DNA of 6,635 nt, from contig JALUHL010000226.1 in the NCBI GenBank assembly GCA_027053695.1, forward strand, positions 1 to 6,635, in the 5' to 3' direction. Under the pieces are notes generated by a model that saw only the letters and a list, made by a program, of their open reading frames with translations, was not told the origin of the DNA and ran no database searches. The position numbers were made by a program, and so were the translations under genes. Positions 624 to 6,635 of the stretch are shown here, one piece after another; the first letter of the stretch is position 1; each line of letters starts with the position of its first letter. This stretch comes from Ghiorsea sp. GTDB taxonomy: Bacteria; Pseudomonadota; Zetaproteobacteria; Mariprofundales; Mariprofundaceae.

Positions 624-1393
624 GCCTAGCTTCTTATGATGCCCACGCATCATTGCAAGATCCTGAGGCTTTGCTCAAGGAATATTTGCCCATGATTAAG
701 TATCATGCGGACCAATTGATGCGGCGAACACCTGCATCCATTGAGTTGGATGATATGATTGATGCTGGTGTGCTTGGCCTTCTGGATGGTGCGCAGCGCT
801 TTGATACCAGTAAGGATGTATTGTTTAAAACCTTTGCAGCCTATCGGGTTCGTGGAGCAATGATTGATTATTTGAGAGCTTTTGATTGGATGCCCAGAGG
901 TTTAAGGGATACCTCAAAATCTTTGCAAGGCGCATTTCAAGAGCTTGAGCAACGCTTTGGCAGGCCTGCCGAAGAAAGTGAAATTGCCGAGTTTCTAGAG
1001 ATGGATTTGGAAACATATAGACAAAAATTAGATCAAGTACGGTCTATGTCGGTGGTCTATTTTGATGATTTGCCCACTGTAAACAGCAGTGACGATGAGC
1101 TGCATGTGCTAGACATTATTGCAGGTGATGCTTCCCTGATGCCCGAGCATCAAACAGCCATGGGTCAATTTGTGGAAAAGTTAGCCCAAGCCATTGAAAT
1201 ATTACCCAAAAAAGAAGCTGTATTATTGAGTTTGTATTATTATGAAGAGTTAAATATGAAAGAGGTTGCCTTGGTTTTGGGATTAACTGAATCGCGGGTT
1301 TCGCAGGTGCACAGTCAAATGGTGATGCGTTTAAGAAGTCACTTAAGCTTATCCGCTGATGGGCAAACTACAGTGCGTAAAAGGAGAGCGTAA
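620..1393 (+). CDS. fliA: Flagellar sigma factor FliA (sigma-28)
   Basis: 257 residues, close to the usual length of about 240-250 for the family. FliA directs RNA polymerase to late flagellar and chemotaxis promoters and is normally held inactive by the anti-sigma factor FlgM until the hook is complete. Region 2 spans about residues 17-95, with LDDMIDAGVLGLLDGAQRFD and the promoter-melting segment RGAMIDYLRAFDWMPR (78-93). Region 3 spans about 100-150, including LEQRFGRPAEESEIAEFL. Region 4 spans about 184-243, with a helix-turn-helix around 212-233 (NMKEVALVLGLTESRVSQVH) that reads the -35 element. AAGGG at 607-611 is 8 nt before the ATG. The start overlaps the upstream stop by 4 bp, and the stop shares its last base with the next start (TAATG), so the gene sits inside a coupled operon. 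Identification is firm; a stress sigma such as SigB is excluded by flagellar context and region 2/3 pattern. Confidence 0.95.
   Translation: MSLASYDAHASLQDPEALLKEYLPMIKYHADQLMRRTPASIELDDMIDAGVLGLLDGAQRFDTSKDVLFKTFAAYRVRGAMIDYLRAFDWMPRGLRDTSKSLQGAFQELEQRFGRPAEESEIAEFLEMDLETYRQKLDQVRSMSVVYFDDLPTVNSSDDELHVLDIIAGDASLMPEHQTAMGQFVEKLAQAIEILPKKEAVLLSLYYYEELNMKEVALVLGLTESRVSQVHSQMVMRLRSHLSLSADGQTTVRKRRA
1379..1386 (+). promoter_or_regulatory. Ribosome binding site for the DUF2802-like gene
   Basis: AAAAGGAG within the last codons of fliA. It is 6 nt before ATG 1393 and 9 nt before a second in-frame ATG at 1396, so either Met can be used and the products differ by one residue. Confidence 0.65.
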
Positions 1394-1920
1394 TGATGGC
1401 ATGGGTGAATCAAATGGATATCAACTTAATATTCGATGGGGCATTGGTATGCGCCATTCTAGGTTTATGGGTGATGTGGTTTCAGCAGGCTGGGCAGCGT
1501 AAAAAAGTAGAGGTGATGCTACAGCAAGCCGCAGCAGATTTGCAACAAGCCAGTTTATTGTTGGAGCATGTTATGCAAGAAAGAGATGCGGGAAAAGAAA
1601 CAAGGCGAGAGGATGAAGTAGCTGAGCGTGAGCAACATCACGCATCAAGCAAGGCTATGGTCGAAGCCATACAAAAAAACATATCCAAGCAGGATAAAAT
1701 CCATATCCAAAATAAAGTGCATATCCAAAAGCGTACTCAAACCCAGAAGAAGTCAAGCCACACTAAGGTGGCAAGAAGGCAGGTTAAAGATGCAGATGCT
1801 GCGACAAAGATTCGTTACCTGCACCAGAAAGGCTTGGATTTAAAAGGAATTTCTCAAAAGCTTGGTTTGCCTATTGCGCAGGTCAAACTGATGTTGCTGC
1901 TGCAAAAAGCACAAGCTTAA
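1393..1920 (+). CDS. Membrane-anchored DUF2802-like protein downstream of fliA
   Basis: 175 residues. One hydrophobic helix at about 11-30 (LIFDGALVCAILGLWVMWF) should anchor it in the inner membrane. It is followed by a probable coiled coil at about 33-65 (Gln/Ala/Leu heptads), then a polar, basic Lys/Gln/His-rich linker (about 66-135). The C-terminal segment at about 138-173 (KIRYLHQKGLDLKGISQKLG, then LPIAQVKLMLLLQ) reads as a small helix-turn-helix-like unit. This plan and C-terminal pattern resemble DUF2802 proteins found next to flagellar and chemotaxis genes in gammaproteobacteria, whose biochemical function is not established to my knowledge. The gene overlaps fliA by one base and is followed after 1 bp by the FliK-like gene. 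DNA binding is not implied, since the HTH-like unit is tethered to the membrane and could be a protein-interaction module. Family assignment is from memory and moderate. Confidence 0.7.
   Translation: MMAWVNQMDINLIFDGALVCAILGLWVMWFQQAGQRKKVEVMLQQAAADLQQASLLLEHVMQERDAGKETRREDEVAEREQHHASSKAMVEAIQKNISKQDKIHIQNKVHIQKRTQTQKKSSHTKVARRQVKDADAATKIRYLHQKGLDLKGISQKLGLPIAQVKLMLLLQKAQA
1680..1728 (+). repeat. Three short direct repeats CATATCCAA
   Basis: CATATCCAA occurs at 1680-1688, 1702-1710 and 1720-1728 inside the linker of the DUF2802-like gene. The last two copies are in the same reading frame and give the repeated peptide HIQ; the first is read in a different frame. It looks like local duplication in a low-constraint linker. 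Confidence 0.6.
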
Positions 1921-2642: not shown

Positions 2643-3866
2643 TCAAGATTCAAGGTAGGGTTCGATTCTTTCCCACATCCGTTCAAGCACTTGGTCTTGC
2701 GCGTGCATAAATAATGCAGCTTGCCCATGAAGTTGCTTCAGTTCAACAGGCTTCTCTAATAGACGGCTGATAGCTTGAGCCAATTCTTTGTTGTTTTGCA
2801 CAATGATAGCTGCGCCATGCTGCTGCATATCTTGGTAAATAGTTTTGAAATTTTGCACATGCTTACCAGATAATACGCCTCTGCCACATACCGCAGCTTC
2901 CAATGGGTTATGCCCACCAATATCGACTAAACTCCCGCCAATAAACACCACATCAGCGATGGTGTAAAGTGATGTTAATATACCCATAGCATCAATGAGC
3001 ACAACATCTTCCTGCCCTGTTCGTTCCTGAGCATAACGAGTATAACTCAAGCCTTGCTCACTGAGCAATTTAGCAACATCTGTAAAACGTTCAGGGTGTC
3101 TAGGGACAATAAGTGTTAATAAGTTTGGTTGTTGCTGTTTCCATACAGGTAGCAGACTTAAGACTTGTGCTTCTTCATCTTCATGGGTGCTGGCAATAAT
3201 TAAAATAGGGCGTTTAGCCGTAGGGTCAATCATTTGTCGGACTTGGGCTGCATCAACATCAGGTGGGCTGACGGCAAACTTGAGGTTGCCAACTGTTTTT
3301 ATATTTTGTTTATCCACGCCCATAGCTTCTAAGCGTTCTGCATCTATATCACTTTGTGCAAGGAATAAAGATACAACGCTCAGCCAACGTGCCCAGAGCT
3401 TTCTGGTTTTATAATATTTGGGGAAAGAGCGGTCGGATATGCGGGTATTGATGCCGACAATAGGAATGCCTTGTTTCTTACATGCCTTAAGCATGCCTGG
3501 CCAAAATTCAGTTTCATTCAAAAGGAGCATGCTGGGGCTTAAATGTTTGATAAAGCGAGCCATCAAAAAAGGTAAGTCCCAAGGCAGCCAACTGATGCTA
3601 ATGTTATCACCGAATAATCGACTTGCATGGGCAAAACCAGTACGGGTGACCACAGTGAGATGCACTACCTTATTTTTCTCAAGTAATCGATGAATCAATG
3701 CAGAAACAGAGCTTACCTCGCCCATGGAGCAGGCATGAATCCACACAGCACCCGTAGGTGCGTTTGGCAGCTGAAACGTCATATGTTGTTGCCACTTCGA
3801 TGCTCTCATACTATATGTAGTATCCCTTGATGATATTAGTCTGATAACATAACGATGAAAAAGCAT
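2643..3866 (-). CDS. waaA: 3-deoxy-D-manno-octulosonic acid (Kdo) transferase
   Basis: 407 residues; family members are usually about 420-430. WaaA/KdtA transfers Kdo from CMP-Kdo to the lipid A precursor at the cytoplasmic face of the inner membrane. Motifs in order: WIHACSMGEV at 42-51 with the expected catalytic base Glu50; LNETEFWPG at 116-124; GINTRISDRSFPKYY at 138-152; VGNLKF at 192-197; ASTHEDEE at 225-232; VPRHPERF at 254-261; and the CMP-Kdo-binding GT-B region FIGGSLVDIGGHNPLEAA at 308-325. The usual N-terminal hydrophobic anchor is not evident; only MLFHRYVIRLI is available. The chosen ATG is the first possible in-frame start after a TAG 20 codons upstream. It has no good Shine-Dalgarno, and Met20 is an alternative. 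Convergent with the flagellar operon (4-bp gap) and divergent from rpfF. Whether it is mono- or bifunctional cannot be told. Confidence 0.93.
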   Translation of the reverse strand: MLFHRYVIRLISSRDTTYSMRASKWQQHMTFQLPNAPTGAVWIHACSMGEVSSVSALIHRLLEKNKVVHLTVVTRTGFAHASRLFGDNISISWLPWDLPFLMARFIKHLSPSMLLLNETEFWPGMLKACKKQGIPIVGINTRISDRSFPKYYKTRKLWARWLSVVSLFLAQSDIDAERLEAMGVDKQNIKTVGNLKFAVSPPDVDAAQVRQMIDPTAKRPILIIASTHEDEEAQVLSLLPVWKQQQPNLLTLIVPRHPERFTDVAKLLSEQGLSYTRYAQERTGQEDVVLIDAMGILTSLYTIADVVFIGGSLVDIGGHNPLEAAVCGRGVLSGKHVQNFKTIYQDMQQHGAAIIVQNNKELAQAISRLLEKPVELKQLHGQAALFMHAQDQVLERMWERIEPYLES

Positions 3867-3986: not shown

Positions 3987-4844
3987 ATGCAGCTAAAAAG
4001 AAAAATAGAACAACAAATTAATAGAGAGGAAAAATTTTCGTCGTTGGATATTACATATGAGGAAGAGCATGCATTGGCGTGGTACAGAATGAATGCACAT
4101 CCAAGGCCGTGTTTAACGAGGGATCTTATTGATGAAGCGCAAGTATGGTTTGATCAAATAACAAAAGAAACGCCTTGTGATTGCAAATTAAAATATATGG
4201 TTATGTCATCAAAGGTTCCTGGTGTATTCAACTTGGGAGGAGACTTGAATTTGTTTATACAACTTATTCGTGAAAAGGATAAAGAAACTTTATTGAAATA
4301 TGATATTGCATGTATCAAAGCTATGTATCGTATTCATAGAGGTTTAGAAAAGGAAATAACAAGTATTGCATTAGTTCAAGGGGATGCGTTAGGTGGCGGT
4401 TTTGAAGGTGTGCTTGCAAATGAAATAATTATAGCCGAAAAAAGTTCAAAGATGGGACTTCCTGACATTCTATTTAACCTTTTTCCTGGCGCTGGAGCTT
4501 ATAGCTTTTTATATAGAAAAGTTGGGTCTGCTTTGGCTGAAGAAATGGTTCTCAGCGGGAAATTATACACGGCACAAGAATTATATGATTTGGGTGTAGT
4601 TAATATTCTTGTTGAGGATGGTGAGGGAGAGCAAGCTGTGTATAACTACATAAAAAAAGAAAACCGTCAAAGAAATGGAAGGTTAGGTTTTAGGAAGGTA
4701 AAAAATCTTAATAACCCTGTAACCCTAGATGAATTAATTGATGGGGCAAAAATATGGGCTGAAACAGCAATGAACCTTGAAGATAAAGATTTAAGGATGA
4801 TGGAGCGATTGGTTAAAAGACAGTCGGCGTTACTTAACCATTAA
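3987..4844 (+). CDS. rpfF: DSF synthase RpfF (crotonase superfamily)
   Basis: 285 residues against 289 in Xanthomonas RpfF. RpfF makes the diffusible signal factor, a cis-2-unsaturated fatty acid, by dehydrating 3-hydroxyacyl-ACP and releasing the acyl chain by thioesterase action in the cytoplasm. It is distinguished from ordinary enoyl-CoA hydratases by FNLGGDLNLFIQLIRE (81-96), SIALVQGDALGGGFEGVLAN (126-145) and MGLPDILFNLFPGAGAYSF (156-174). It also keeps the C-terminal IWAETAMNL and RLVKRQS segments. GGD at 84-86 and GGG at 136-138 form the oxyanion-hole region. Glu140 aligns with catalytic Glu141 of Xanthomonas RpfF, but Asp160 replaces Glu161. Trp257 and Leu275 match pocket residues Trp258 and Leu276. 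Its codons are more AT-rich than its neighbours, suggesting different ancestry. It converges on an rpfC-like kinase, as in Xanthomonas; no rpfB-like acyl-CoA ligase is present. The chain length of the product cannot be predicted. Family alignment is from memory. Confidence 0.92.
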   Translation: MQLKRKIEQQINREEKFSSLDITYEEEHALAWYRMNAHPRPCLTRDLIDEAQVWFDQITKETPCDCKLKYMVMSSKVPGVFNLGGDLNLFIQLIREKDKETLLKYDIACIKAMYRIHRGLEKEITSIALVQGDALGGGFEGVLANEIIIAEKSSKMGLPDILFNLFPGAGAYSFLYRKVGSALAEEMVLSGKLYTAQELYDLGVVNILVEDGEGEQAVYNYIKKENRQRNGRLGFRKVKNLNNPVTLDELIDGAKIWAETAMNLEDKDLRMMERLVKRQSALLNH

Positions 4845-4864
4845 GTCAGGAATACTTCCCTTTG

Positions 4865-4898
4865 CTTATGCGCTACGTTGTTGGATGTAGCGCATAAG
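4865..4898. terminator. Perfect 12-bp inverted repeat, probable rpfF terminator
   Basis: CTTATGCGCTAC (4865-4876) and GTAGCGCATAAG (4887-4898) are exact reverse complements around a 10-nt loop. On the + strand the stem begins 20 nt after the rpfF stop and is followed by the T-rich TTCTTGCTT, giving a plausible though imperfect intrinsic terminator. On the - strand it covers the last codons and stop of the kinase gene and is followed by CAAAGGG without a U-tract, so termination in that direction is less certain. Confidence 0.55.
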
Positions 4899-6635
4899 TT
4901 CTTGCTTAGTTGCTTCTACCACCTCATGTAGTGGTTCAATGTTTGCTTGCAAGGCTTTTATATCTGCATGTTCAGCGATGGCCTCAATGTCATCACATGT
5001 TTGTTGGATAGCTGTAGCGCCCATCATGCCTGCGGAGCCTTTAAGGGTGTGGATAATGTTCATATAATCTTTTTTATCTTGGTGTTGCGCAGCAAAGGTT
5101 AATGCGGATACTTTTTCATCTGTGGCAGTCATAAATTTTTCAACCAAGCCCTCGACAAACTTTTCCTTTTTGGTCATGCCGCTTAGTTTATCCAGAGGTG
5201 CTATATCAATATATTGCCAAGTGTGCTGTTGAGGTTGTTGGAAGGGTATAATATTGGCAGGGGTTGGTTGTTGCTTGGTGGGTATCAATTTATCAATGGC
5301 TTGCGCTAGATTTTGATGCTCAATGGGTTTGGTGAGATAAGCATCGGCACCAGCAGCTAAGCATTCGTCTATATTTCCAGACATCGCATCAGCCGAAAGA
5401 ATAATCATGGGCAAATGCTCCCCAACTTCTAAAAAGCGATAAGCCTTAACCACATCCAAGCCAGATATATGAGGCATGTTCACATCCAACAGAGCTAAAT
5501 CAAAAGTATGGTTCTCTTGCTCTAAAGCATCGAGCGCTTGTTCACCATCATCCACCATGGTGACATGATGATTCATGCGCTCTAAAAATTCACGAATCAC
5601 AATTTGATTCACCTCATTATCTTCAGCAACGAGAATATTGAGCCCAAGATGCTGCTCTTGCTTTTGTTGCTTGGCGATGGATGGGATATCTTGATGCAAA
5701 GATTTGCCCACACAAATTTCATGTATGGCATTAAAGAGCAAGGATTCATTGAGTGGATAGCAAAGCACTTCAGCAAAGCCTTGTTCAATGAAAATTTCAG
5801 CAGAAATTTTATCCAAGCACTCACCCACCAAGACAAAGGCAATATCATTTAAGCCCTTTTTACGCACACGCACTATGAATTCTTCAGCAGGCATGCCTAG
5901 CATCTCTTGATCCACAATGGCAATATGAAAAGGTGTTTGCACAGCATGGGAGCCAGATAAAAGCGTCAACACATCGAGCACATTATCACATGTTTGCACA
6001 TCCTGCCCCCAGCGTTGCATGGGGGATAAAAATTGCTCTATTTTATTCTGGGGTAGTAAGGTGAGGATTCGTGCATCGGCAAAATCTGTTCGCTTGGCAA
6101 TGCTTTCTTTGGAGCAAGACTCAGGGCATTCAAAAGGGAGAGTAAACCAAAACTCCGAGCCTTCACCTTCCTTACTGGTCAGCCCAATCTCACCGCCCAT
6201 AAGCTCAATCAATTCTTTGGAAATGGTTGTACCAAGGCCAGTGCCACCGTATTGGCGAGTGGTGGAGACATCGGCTTGGGTAAAGCTATCAAATATCTTG
6301 CGTTGTGCTTGTTCTGAAAGCCCAATACCCGTATCTATCACGCGAAAGCGAAGCCATGTTTTTGAAGGCGTTGATTTGTCCATGCGCTCCACAAGCACTT
6401 TAATGCTACCTTTTTCAGTGAACTTTAAGGCATTGCTGATAAAGTTGATGAGTATTTGTCGAATATGCAGCTCATCACCGCACAGCTGGAACTTCACATC
6501 TGCATCCACATGGGAAGTCAGTGTAAGGTTCTTCTTGGCAGCTTGCGGCATAAAAGTTTGTAATGTTGAGCTAATAAGCATATGTAAATCAAAGGGTTTG
6601 ATTTCTATGGTTTGCTTGCCTGCCTCAATCTTGGA
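4866..6635 (-). CDS. rpfC: RpfC-like hybrid sensor histidine kinase (HATPase-REC-REC-HPt), C-terminal part
   Basis: 589 residues visible, open at the right edge; the first is encoded at 6635-6633. The fragment starts at SKIEAGK, the linker just after the HisKA helices, so sensor segments and phospho-His lie outside. HATPase domain, about 45-170: N-box Asn68, DTGIG at 101-105, GGTGLG at 130-135. A degenerate receiver follows at about 187-313: Asp242 is in the acceptor position, but the N-terminal acidic pair is absent and the conserved Lys is Tyr293. An intact receiver spans about 331-452: Glu338/Asp339, acceptor Asp384 (codon 5486-5484), Ser414, Lys436. A Gln/Pro-rich linker leads to the C-terminal HPt domain with His529 in HTLKGSAG (codon 5051-5049). 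RpfC senses DSF, signals through HPt to the HD-GYP protein RpfG, and in Xanthomonas its receiver also binds and restrains RpfF. The name rests on domain order plus convergence with rpfF. Xanthomonas RpfC has one receiver, so another BarA-type hybrid kinase remains possible. Confidence 0.72.
   Translation of the reverse strand, partial: SKIEAGKQTIEIKPFDLHMLISSTLQTFMPQAAKKNLTLTSHVDADVKFQLCGDELHIRQILINFISNALKFTEKGSIKVLVERMDKSTPSKTWLRFRVIDTGIGLSEQAQRKIFDSFTQADVSTTRQYGGTGLGTTISKELIELMGGEIGLTSKEGEGSEFWFTLPFECPESCSKESIAKRTDFADARILTLLPQNKIEQFLSPMQRWGQDVQTCDNVLDVLTLLSGSHAVQTPFHIAIVDQEMLGMPAEEFIVRVRKKGLNDIAFVLVGECLDKISAEIFIEQGFAEVLCYPLNESLLFNAIHEICVGKSLHQDIPSIAKQQKQEQHLGLNILVAEDNEVNQIVIREFLERMNHHVTMVDDGEQALDALEQENHTFDLALLDVNMPHISGLDVVKAYRFLEVGEHLPMIILSADAMSGNIDECLAAGADAYLTKPIEHQNLAQAIDKLIPTKQQPTPANIIPFQQPQQHTWQYIDIAPLDKLSGMTKKEKFVEGLVEKFMTATDEKVSALTFAAQHQDKKDYMNIIHTLKGSAGMMGATAIQQTCDDIEAIAEHADIKALQANIEPLHEVVEATKQELMRYIQQRSA

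What the first reader, a model, noticed from the sequence alone, without database searches (positions are those of the whole stretch)
3987..6635. Probable DSF quorum-sensing module: rpfF convergent with an rpfC-like kinase
The sequence shows an RpfF-type crotonase ending 21 bp from the end of a convergent hybrid kinase with receivers and an HPt domain. In Xanthomonas rpfF and rpfC are also convergent neighbours. Together they suggest complete signal synthesis and perception in an organism that is probably not a xanthomonad, judging by its moderate-to-low GC and unusual flagellar gene set.
Basis: partly seen in the sequence, partly recalled or inferred. Interest (0 to 1): 0.82.

Follow-up and report, generated by a model that had tools for sequence, protein, structure and literature searches.

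The report
Exchangeable signal-receptor types in DSF signalling
A zetaproteobacterium carries a gene for a likely fatty-acid signal synthase beside part of a kinase whose relatives have an RpfC-type sensor, and across its class the synthase core and the sensor are often exchanged together while the kinase body between them stays put, which would likely let these bacteria switch chemical dialects.

Summary
In detail: an RpfF-type crotonase (3987-4844, +) ends 21 bp from a convergent hybrid kinase (4866-6635, -; 5' part cut by the contig end). The host is a Ghiorsea-like zetaproteobacterium. Relatives supply the missing part, an RpfC-type multi-helix sensor; 29 of 34 zetaproteobacterial rpfF copies have it, the other five reach a contig end first. 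rpfG, linked to rpfC in 37 of 54 loci outside the class, is linked in only one fetched zetaproteobacterial locus.

The larger finding is a double-island mosaic. Of 16 locus pairs with kinase bodies >=75% identical, 12 have sensors <=50% identical, mostly with different RpfF cores. Within the genus, core and sensor divergence correlate at 0.83; neither tracks the kinase body lying between them. Thiobacillus-type loci show the same. The window's RpfF is a variant with Asp for a catalytic Glu (Xanthomonas E161) and Ala for pocket Met170, a fully linked pair in 120 of 120 homologues (E-M, D-A or D-I). Nine of 14 sensors partnered with this variant replace two residues of the known DSF hook.

Best reading: a DSF-type module in exchangeable signal/receptor types. 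The mosaic is shown; chemical specificity is inferred.

The parts
3987..4844 (+). rpfF-type DSF synthase gene (285 aa)
   Evidence: AlphaFold2 model (mean pLDDT 83.8) best matches RpfF structures 3m6m, 7zq7, 3m6n
4404..4406 (+). codon of Glu140, aligned with catalytic Glu141 of Xanthomonas RpfF; unchanged
4464..4466 (+). codon of Asp160 where Xanthomonas RpfF has catalytic Glu161
4491..4493 (+). codon of Ala169 where Xanthomonas RpfF has substrate-pocket Met170; changes together with position 160 in every homologue examined
   Evidence: pocket role from PMC9864630 (passages)
3987..4100 (+). rpfF 5' segment that stays with the resident locus in exchanges of relatives (about the first 38 residues; boundary approximate)
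4101..4844 (+). exchangeable island 1: RpfF core (boundary approximate, inferred from relatives)
4845..4865 (.). 21-bp gap between the convergent stop codons
4866..6635 (-). rpfC-type hybrid histidine kinase, body only; sensor and most of HisKA lie beyond the contig end
6132..6479 (-). HATPase_c domain
5295..5636 (-). receiver domain; putative phosphoacceptor Asp384 codon at 5484-5486
4902..5147 (-). HPt domain; putative phospho-histidine 529 codon at 5049-5051

Best explanation
The window holds an RpfF-type synthase gene convergent with the body of a likely RpfC-type kinase, and in its class the synthase core and the receptor's sensor are often replaced together as two separate DNA islands around a resident kinase body, so the locus likely works as a signalling module that comes in interchangeable signal/receptor types. 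RpfF would make a cis-2-unsaturated fatty acid (inferred from family). The N-terminal multi-helix sensor of RpfC would detect it and pass phosphate through HisKA, receiver and HPt to an unidentified response regulator (inferred). Recombination replaces the RpfF core and the RpfC sensor but keeps the rpfF 5' end, the kinase body and the flanking genes (shown in relatives). Because the two exchanged pieces are those that would set signal structure and signal recognition, and they co-vary with each other but not with the kinase body between them, the most likely selected property is a match between signal and receptor (inferred). The window carries a type in which the second catalytic carboxylate is Asp instead of Glu and the pocket Met is Ala (shown); this predicts a remodelled acyl pocket and so a signal of different chain or branching (inferred, untested).
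For: Pairing: 34 rpfF copies in 33 of 78 zetaproteobacterial genomes; 29 have a convergent kinase with the RpfC-type N-terminus and five end at a contig edge before the sensor. Mosaic: 12 of 16 locus pairs with kinase bodies >=75% identical have sensors <=50% identical. G011/G015: body dS 0.38, rpfF 5' end dS 0.40, RpfF core dS 2.1, sensor saturated; flanking proteins 89-95% identical; two sharp islands in the DNA. Control G024/G072, same type: all four segments dS 0.55-0.79, sensor dN 0.083 vs body 0.070, so the sensor is not intrinsically fast. Co-variation: genus g1 (10 loci) core-sensor 0.83 (0 of 2000 permutations), core-body -0.06, sensor-body -0.19; all 28 loci core-sensor given body 0.39 (0 of 2000). 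Trees: the D/E residue changes 2 times on the core tree, 3 on the sensor tree, 7 on the body tree; quartet agreement core-sensor 0.71, core-body 0.54, sensor-body 0.47; AU tests reject the body's groupings for core and sensor. Repeated in Thiobacillus-type loci: L116/L122 body 80%, sensor 40%, core 64%; L102/L116 body 83%, sensor 41%, core 64%, with DNA islands. Active site: 120 homologues, E-M 74, D-A 43, D-I 3. Hook: sensors with D-type partners have [NST]-P-E in 9 of 14; sensors with E-type partners have D-[ST]-E in 12 of 16, at positions needed for DSF sensing in Xanthomonas RpfC (PMC5391125, passages).
Against: No signal has been measured; specificity is inferred from co-variation. Core and sensor are not always exchanged together: G029/G097 have RpfF cores 87% identical (over the 164 residues of G029 available) but sensors 45%, and G036/G097 75% versus 47%. 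Five of 14 D-type partners keep a D-S-E or D-A-E hook (G023, G031, G078, G086, G088), so active-site type and hook type do not map one to one. The window's own sensor was not found. Outside the genus the core also tracks the body (0.32), and across 48 non-zeta loci core-sensor (0.63) does not exceed core-body (0.63). Four of 15 triplets did not show reversal of both core and sensor.
Confidence: 0.68

Rival explanations
1. An ordinary DSF module with one common signal; sensor and synthase core merely evolve faster than the kinase body.
For: Sensors are less conserved than bodies in most of the closest comparisons.
Against: Synonymous divergence differs between segments of one locus (G011/G015 body 0.38, core 2.1, sensor saturated), which selection on protein would not give; in the same-type pair G024/G072 sensor and body diverge equally; outside each island identity returns to that of the flanks; tree topologies conflict, with AU support.
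Confidence: 0.08
2. The exchanges keep the physical fit between RpfF and the receiver domain of RpfC, not a signal-receptor match.
For: RpfF-receiver binding is known in Xanthomonas (3m6m title; PMC4517397 Introduction).
Against: Within the genus the RpfF core does not track the receiver (-0.13) or HPt (0.07) but tracks the sensor (0.83).
Confidence: 0.08
3. The mosaics are metagenome-assembly chimeras.
For: Most loci come from MAGs; G003 carries two rpfF copies and a third RpfC-type kinase with 5% estimated contamination.
Against: Two single-contig genomes, G023 and G074 (2,301,665 and 2,537,610 bp, the contig sizes listed with Mariprofundus ferrinatatus and M. aestuarium proteins), show the conflict: sites shared by G023 only with G074 / only with the MAG G088 are body 130/32, core 21/53, sensor 15/38. 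The pattern recurs in Thiobacillus-type loci.
Confidence: 0.05
4. The D/A RpfF is a degenerate or cheating synthase that makes little or no signal, as proposed for S. maltophilia rpf-2 strains.
For: Glu161 is a catalytic residue in the Xanthomonas enzyme (PMC9864630, passages); producers and low-producers with different rpfF/rpfC types exist (PMC4517397 abstract).
Against: Asp keeps the carboxylate; D occurs in 46 of 120 homologues, with Glu140, Trp257 and Leu275 unchanged in all 120; the core is under constraint (G000/G003a dN 0.021, dS 0.29); and D always carries the second change M to A or I, which looks like tuning rather than decay.
Confidence: 0.11

Closest known systems
Xanthomonas rpfF/rpfC (DSF) system
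   Same: RpfF fold and Glu141 equivalent; convergent rpfF-rpfC; in relatives a multi-helix input followed by HisKA, HATPase, receiver and HPt.
   Different: rpfG-like gene beside rpfC in only one fetched zetaproteobacterial locus (G020); catalytic Glu161 is Asp and Met170 is Ala in the window; in Ghiorsea bivora the pair lies between waaA and a suf operon.
Stenotrophomonas maltophilia rpf-1/rpf-2 variants (PMC4517397; abstract, passages and Introduction read)
   Same: Linked RpfF and RpfC variants with predicted recombination breakpoints.
   Different: Two types only; differences reported mainly in the N-termini of both proteins, with a 10- versus 5-helix sensor. Here the RpfF N-terminus stays and the core is exchanged, the sensors keep one layout, 31 sensors fall into 10 to 19 clusters (single linkage at 50-60% identity), and there is an active-site switch.
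Xanthomonas axonopodis RpfF/RpfC (PMC2585010, passages)
   Same: RpfF and RpfC jointly divergent from other species; lateral replacement suggested there.
   Different: Single case, no segment-level dissection in the passages read.
Staphylococcus agr groups and Bacillus ComQXP pherotypes (recalled, not read here)
   Same: Synthesis and sensor parts co-diversify while the kinase body is conserved.
   Different: Peptide signals; there the variable segment is one contiguous stretch, here two islands separated by the conserved kinase body.
Leptospirillum rpfFCG (PMC8357829, passages)
   Same: DSF system in an iron oxidiser; [quoted passage not shown]
   Different: Unidirectional cluster with rpfG.

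Membership tests
RpfF (DSF synthase) | Closest to RpfF among crotonases in sequence and fold | tested here: met
   (NCBIfam RpfF equivalog cut-off itself not reached: 245 of 550 bits)
RpfF (DSF synthase) | Two catalytic glutamates (Xcc Glu141, Glu161) | tested here: not met
   Glu140 present; second position is Asp160. Filed as an RpfF-type variant, not as a canonical RpfF
RpfF (DSF synthase) | Makes a cis-2-unsaturated fatty acid | not testable with these tools
   needs LC-MS
RpfC | Five N-terminal membrane helices directly joined to HisKA, without HAMP or PAS | tested here: inconclusive
   window's own copy is cut. In relatives: mean hydropathy of 31 sensors shows five to six hydrophobic segments in the first ~175 residues; Pfam of two shows HisKA directly after and no HAMP/PAS
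RpfC | HATPase, receiver and C-terminal HPt | tested here: met
RpfC | DSF hook R15-x-D17-S18-E19-x-x-Q22 | tested here: inconclusive
   window's copy cut; the sensor beside the closest RpfF core, G003a, reads R-x-S-P-E-x-x-Q
complete rpf DSF system | RpfG (REC-HD-GYP) as output | tested here: not met
   none in the own, 71% complete genome; absence cannot be final. Linked RpfG-like gene in 37 of 54 non-zeta loci and in G020
mosaic signal/receptor type system | Synthase and sensor segments recombine together against a conserved body | tested here: met
   exceptions G029/G097 and G036/G097
mosaic signal/receptor type system | Types do not cross-activate | not testable with these tools
   needs signal and reporter assays

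The most novel reading that the evidence does not exclude
DSF signalling in iron- and sulphur-oxidising proteobacteria is a many-dialect system: recombination swaps the RpfF core and the RpfC sensor together around a fixed kinase, and one large dialect family uses an Asp/Ala-remodelled synthase to make a non-canonical fatty-acid signal read by sensors that have dropped the canonical DSF hook.
Probability: 0.48. Interest if true: 0.85.

Novelty: new variant of a known kind. Interest (0 to 1): 0.72.

Why it matters
DSF-family signals are often treated as broadly shared between species (my understanding, recalled). A natural series of loci in which synthase core and sensor have been swapped while the kinase was held constant would let one map which residues set signal structure and recognition, and ask whether private dialects evolve in fatty-acid signalling as they do with peptides. 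DSF and BDSF inhibit iron oxidation in acidophilic iron oxidisers (PMC8357829, passages), so dialects could shape competition among iron and sulphur oxidisers.

Tried and rejected
Own-genome HD-GYP hit (G000:C68, 415 aa) rejected as rpfG: by eye its sequence shows no receiver region and a degenerate HD motif (no Pfam scan was run on it). A REC-GAF-HD-GYP protein was considered as output: present in 46 of 78 genomes (22 of 33 with rpfF, 24 of 45 without), so uninformative. An RpfG-like query hits 13 of 33 rpfF-bearing and 17 of 45 rpfF-lacking genomes at E <= 1e-50, but at most 26 candidates per genome were scored and some hits cover only the HD-GYP half. NCBIfam's best names for the kinase (BarA, TorS) rejected: far below cut-off and driven by the body. 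Idea that RpfF tracks the receiver it binds: not seen. A search for the missing sensor in the own genome found only matches around HisKA in other kinases. Literature: Mariprofundus + rpfF gave 0 papers; Zetaproteobacteria + quorum sensing + diffusible signal factor gave 1 review, in whose passages no zetaproteobacterial DSF system appears; DSF with recombination/pherotype terms gave the Xanthomonadales papers cited among others listed; RpfC + sensor domain + DSF + Thiobacillus gave 0. These searches cover open-licence PMC only. One search (agr/ComQXP) listed nothing useful, so those comparisons are recalled.

Rows dropped: searches left out G000, G014 and G029 (incomplete sensor, body or RpfF) and rpfF copies without a kinase; 28 of 34 kept. 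One search dropped six of 54 non-zeta loci for a missing or uncalled gene; 48 kept. One search counted 99 rows in which some loci occur twice (named and unnamed copies); class counts here are and homologue counts. Trees are of the quick kind. Triplets, AU groups and DNA pairs were chosen after seeing identities or trees, and triplets share genomes, so their p-values are descriptive. Notebook says '2 of 17' E-type sensors with proline at the Ser18 position; one search gives 2 of 16.
Full report
WHAT IS THERE. The window is the entire contig C226 of a 1.33-Mb, 247-contig, 70.7% complete genome. Its nearest named relatives by RpfF are Ghiorsea sp. and other Zetaproteobacteria (titles). It encodes a FliA-type sigma factor (620-1393) and a Kdo-transferase-type protein (2643-3866, -), an RpfF-type crotonase (3987-4844, +) and, 21 bp on, a convergent hybrid kinase (4866-6635, -) cut at the contig end. 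The crotonase scores 362.6 bits with NCBIfam PRK08788 (cut-off 177) and 245.1 with the RpfF equivalog (cut-off 550, not reached), against 73.8 for the next model. By sequence and by predicted fold (mean pLDDT 83.8) its best solved relatives are RpfF-type synthases, 3m6m, 7zq7, 3m6n, 5fus and 6dgn, with a clear gap to other crotonases.

THE MISSING PART OF THE KINASE. Relatives show it. In the class, 33 of 78 genomes carry 34 rpfF copies. In 29 a kinase with one shared multi-helix N-terminus lies convergent next to rpfF (28 of about 800-860 aa, one, G017, of 614 aa); the other five (window, G014, G010, G092, G096) run into a contig end before the sensor is reached. The profile used was built from 20 of these kinases, so the match shows sameness, not by itself RpfC identity. 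The averaged hydropathy of 31 sensors has five to six hydrophobic segments in the first ~175 residues; Pfam of two kinases shows HisKA, HATPase, receiver and HPt after it and no HAMP or PAS. Xanthomonas RpfC is described with five membrane helices and a short linker instead of HAMP (PMC5391125, passages), and 14 of 120 listed relatives are named RpfC in their sources. Outside the class, 49 of 54 loci have such a kinase; in 46 of the 48 where both genes were called it is convergent within 250 bp. rpfG is another matter. An RpfG-like gene lies upstream of rpfC on the same strand in 37 of 54 non-zeta loci, but in the fetched zetaproteobacterial loci only in G020. The own genome has only a degenerate HD-GYP protein. 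In the class RpfG-like hits occur in 13 of 33 genomes with rpfF and 17 of 45 without. The output regulator of the window's system is unknown.

AN ACTIVE-SITE VARIANT. Xanthomonas RpfF has catalytic Glu141 and Glu161, and Met170 and Trp258 may contact the precursor (PMC9864630, passages). In the window the equivalents are Glu140, Asp160, Ala169 and Trp257. Among the 120 best homologues (the window's own included) positions 160/169 are E-M in 74, D-A in 43 and D-I in 3, with no other combination; Glu140, Trp257 and Leu275 never change. Among the next most type-specific positions, 247 to 255 lie on the predicted helix that carries Trp257: 253 is mostly Ile in E-type and mostly Ala or Gly in D-type, 247 mostly Tyr or Phe versus mostly Leu or Arg. 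In the class 15 of 34 copies are D-type and 19 E-type; Mariprofundus ferrooxydans PV-1 (L071) is D-type, and all 53 copies from loci not titled as zetaproteobacterial are E-M. The D-type core is constrained (G000/G003a dN 0.021, dS 0.29), so it is a working variant rather than decay. Smaller side chains at 169 and 253 predict a remodelled acyl pocket; that is inference.

THE MOSAIC. Comparing loci segment by segment showed something larger. Of 16 locus pairs with kinase bodies at least 75% identical, 12 have sensors at most 50% identical. Ten of these 12 have RpfF data: nine cores are 56-75% identical and one, G029/G097, is 87% over a partial RpfF. The cleanest case is G011 (E-type) against G015 (D-type). 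Flanking proteins are 89-95% identical. Synonymous divergence is 0.38 in the kinase body and 0.40 in the first 39 aligned residues of rpfF, but 2.1 in the rpfF core and saturated in the sensor. In 100-base windows identity is mostly 76-98% except in two islands, the rpfF core (46-80%) and the 5' end of rpfC (42-68%). G003b/G004, G004/G012 and G036/G097 show related shapes, the first with a lower 3' end of rpfC, the last with only part of rpfF exchanged. G024/G072, which share a type, show equal divergence in all segments and no islands of that kind; sensors are therefore not intrinsically fast. G003 holds kinases on C29 and C36 whose bodies are 87% and sensors 32% identical.

CORE AND SENSOR TRAVEL TOGETHER. 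In the genus (10 loci) RpfF-core divergence correlates with sensor divergence at 0.83 (0 of 2000 permutations reach it) but not with the kinase body (-0.06); sensor and body are uncorrelated (-0.19). The core does not track HisKA, HATPase, receiver or HPt either. The body lies physically between the two, so linkage alone cannot explain this. Over all 28 complete loci the partial correlation core-sensor given body is 0.39 (0 of 2000), core-body given sensor 0.21 (3 of 2000). Quartet agreement is 0.71 for core-sensor, 0.54 core-body, 0.47 sensor-body. The D/E residue, left out of the core tree, changes twice on the core tree, 3 times on the sensor tree and 7 times on the body tree. AU tests reject the body's G011+G015 and G019+G031 groups for core and sensor, and two core/sensor groups for the body. 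Of 15 triplets examined, 11 show body sites favouring one partner and both core and sensor sites favouring the other; four do not (G003b, G034, G074 with G003b, G077). Assembly chimerism is unlikely, because two single-contig genomes (G023, G074) show the reversal: body 130/32, core 21/53, sensor 15/38. Exceptions exist: in G029/G097 and G036/G097 the sensor differs more than the core does.

BEYOND THE CLASS. Thiobacillus-type (Hydrogenophilales) loci fall into two sets with kinase bodies up to 84% identical between sets, sensors about 40% and cores about 63%, while same-set pairs among the 40 closest have sensors of 68-99%. L102 or L116 against the other set shows both islands, with flanks near 85-95% (L102/L116); there the 3' end of rpfC is also lower. 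(L105, used in one such pair, is titled 'Rhizobium sp.', probably a misnamed MAG.) Across all 48 non-zeta loci core-sensor (0.63) does not exceed core-body (0.63), as expected when deep descent dominates.

THE SENSOR HOOK. In Xanthomonas RpfC, Arg15, Asp17, Ser18, Glu19 and Gln22 are needed for DSF sensing, and Ser18 can be functionally replaced by Thr (PMC5391125, passages). The same spacing appears in these sensors. Of 16 sensors with E-type partners 12 read D-[ST]-E; exceptions are G019 (N-P), G029 (N-G), G036 (G-G) and G095 (D-P). Of 14 with D-type partners, nine read [NST]-P-E, keeping Glu19 and Gln22 but replacing Asp17 and Ser18; four read D-S-E and one D-A-E. So the hook is altered in most, not all, D-type partners. 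This suggests, without proving, a different mode of ligand recognition.

INTERPRETATION. Shown: RpfF type, convergent pairing, linked active-site variant, double-island recombination in relatives, co-segregation of synthase core and sensor. Inferred: that the exchange preserves a match between signal and receptor, that types make chemically different DSF-family signals, that the window's own missing sensor follows its relatives, and that phosphotransfer reaches an unlinked regulator. Precedent exists: S. maltophilia has two fully linked RpfF/RpfC variants with predicted breakpoints (PMC4517397, abstract, passages and Introduction), and X. axonopodis has jointly divergent RpfF and RpfC (PMC2585010, passages). 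The present case differs in the number of types, in which part of RpfF is exchanged, in the two-island architecture and in the catalytic switch, hence 'new variant of a known kind'. In the open-licence library I found no paper holding both Mariprofundus and rpfF and one review holding Zetaproteobacteria with diffusible signal factor, mentioned apart.

Noticed in passing
window 1393-1920 and 1922-2638: Two genes after the FliA-type sigma factor are only 39-48% identical to their G003 counterparts while neighbours are 80-91%; the second could be a fast-evolving flagellar hook-length-type protein (guess).
   Followed up: no
L055 1014-3524: G003 has a further RpfC-type kinase with a third sensor (hook region S-L-D) on a 3.8-kb contig; no rpfF was found on that contig.
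   Followed up: partly
L047 7667-14936: In Ghiorsea bivora the pair sits between a flagellar/waaA block and a suf-type iron-sulphur assembly operon (FeS_assembly_P, NifU_N, Aminotran_5); homologous flanks recur in several genus relatives.
   Followed up: partly
L049 12611-13903: In G020 an RpfG-like REC-HD-GYP gene (430 aa, 49% identical to the query) lies directly upstream of rpfC, as in many non-zeta loci.
   Followed up: partly
L056 505-4532: Own-genome cluster of an AAA-type ATPase, a degenerate HD-GYP protein and two proteins that look cyclic-nucleotide-binding (by eye).
   Followed up: no
L080: A contig titled 'Halobacteria archaeon' carries a proteobacterial-type rpfF-rpfC pair; probably mis-binned.
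   Followed up: no
L036 5650-7494: The G017 kinase partner is only 614 aa and loses similarity after about residue 530: truncated, frameshifted or rearranged.
   Followed up: no
L185 and 45 other places: A REC-GAF-HD-GYP protein of about 530 aa is present in 46 of 78 zetaproteobacterial genomes, 22 of 33 with rpfF and 24 of 45 without.
   Followed up: yes
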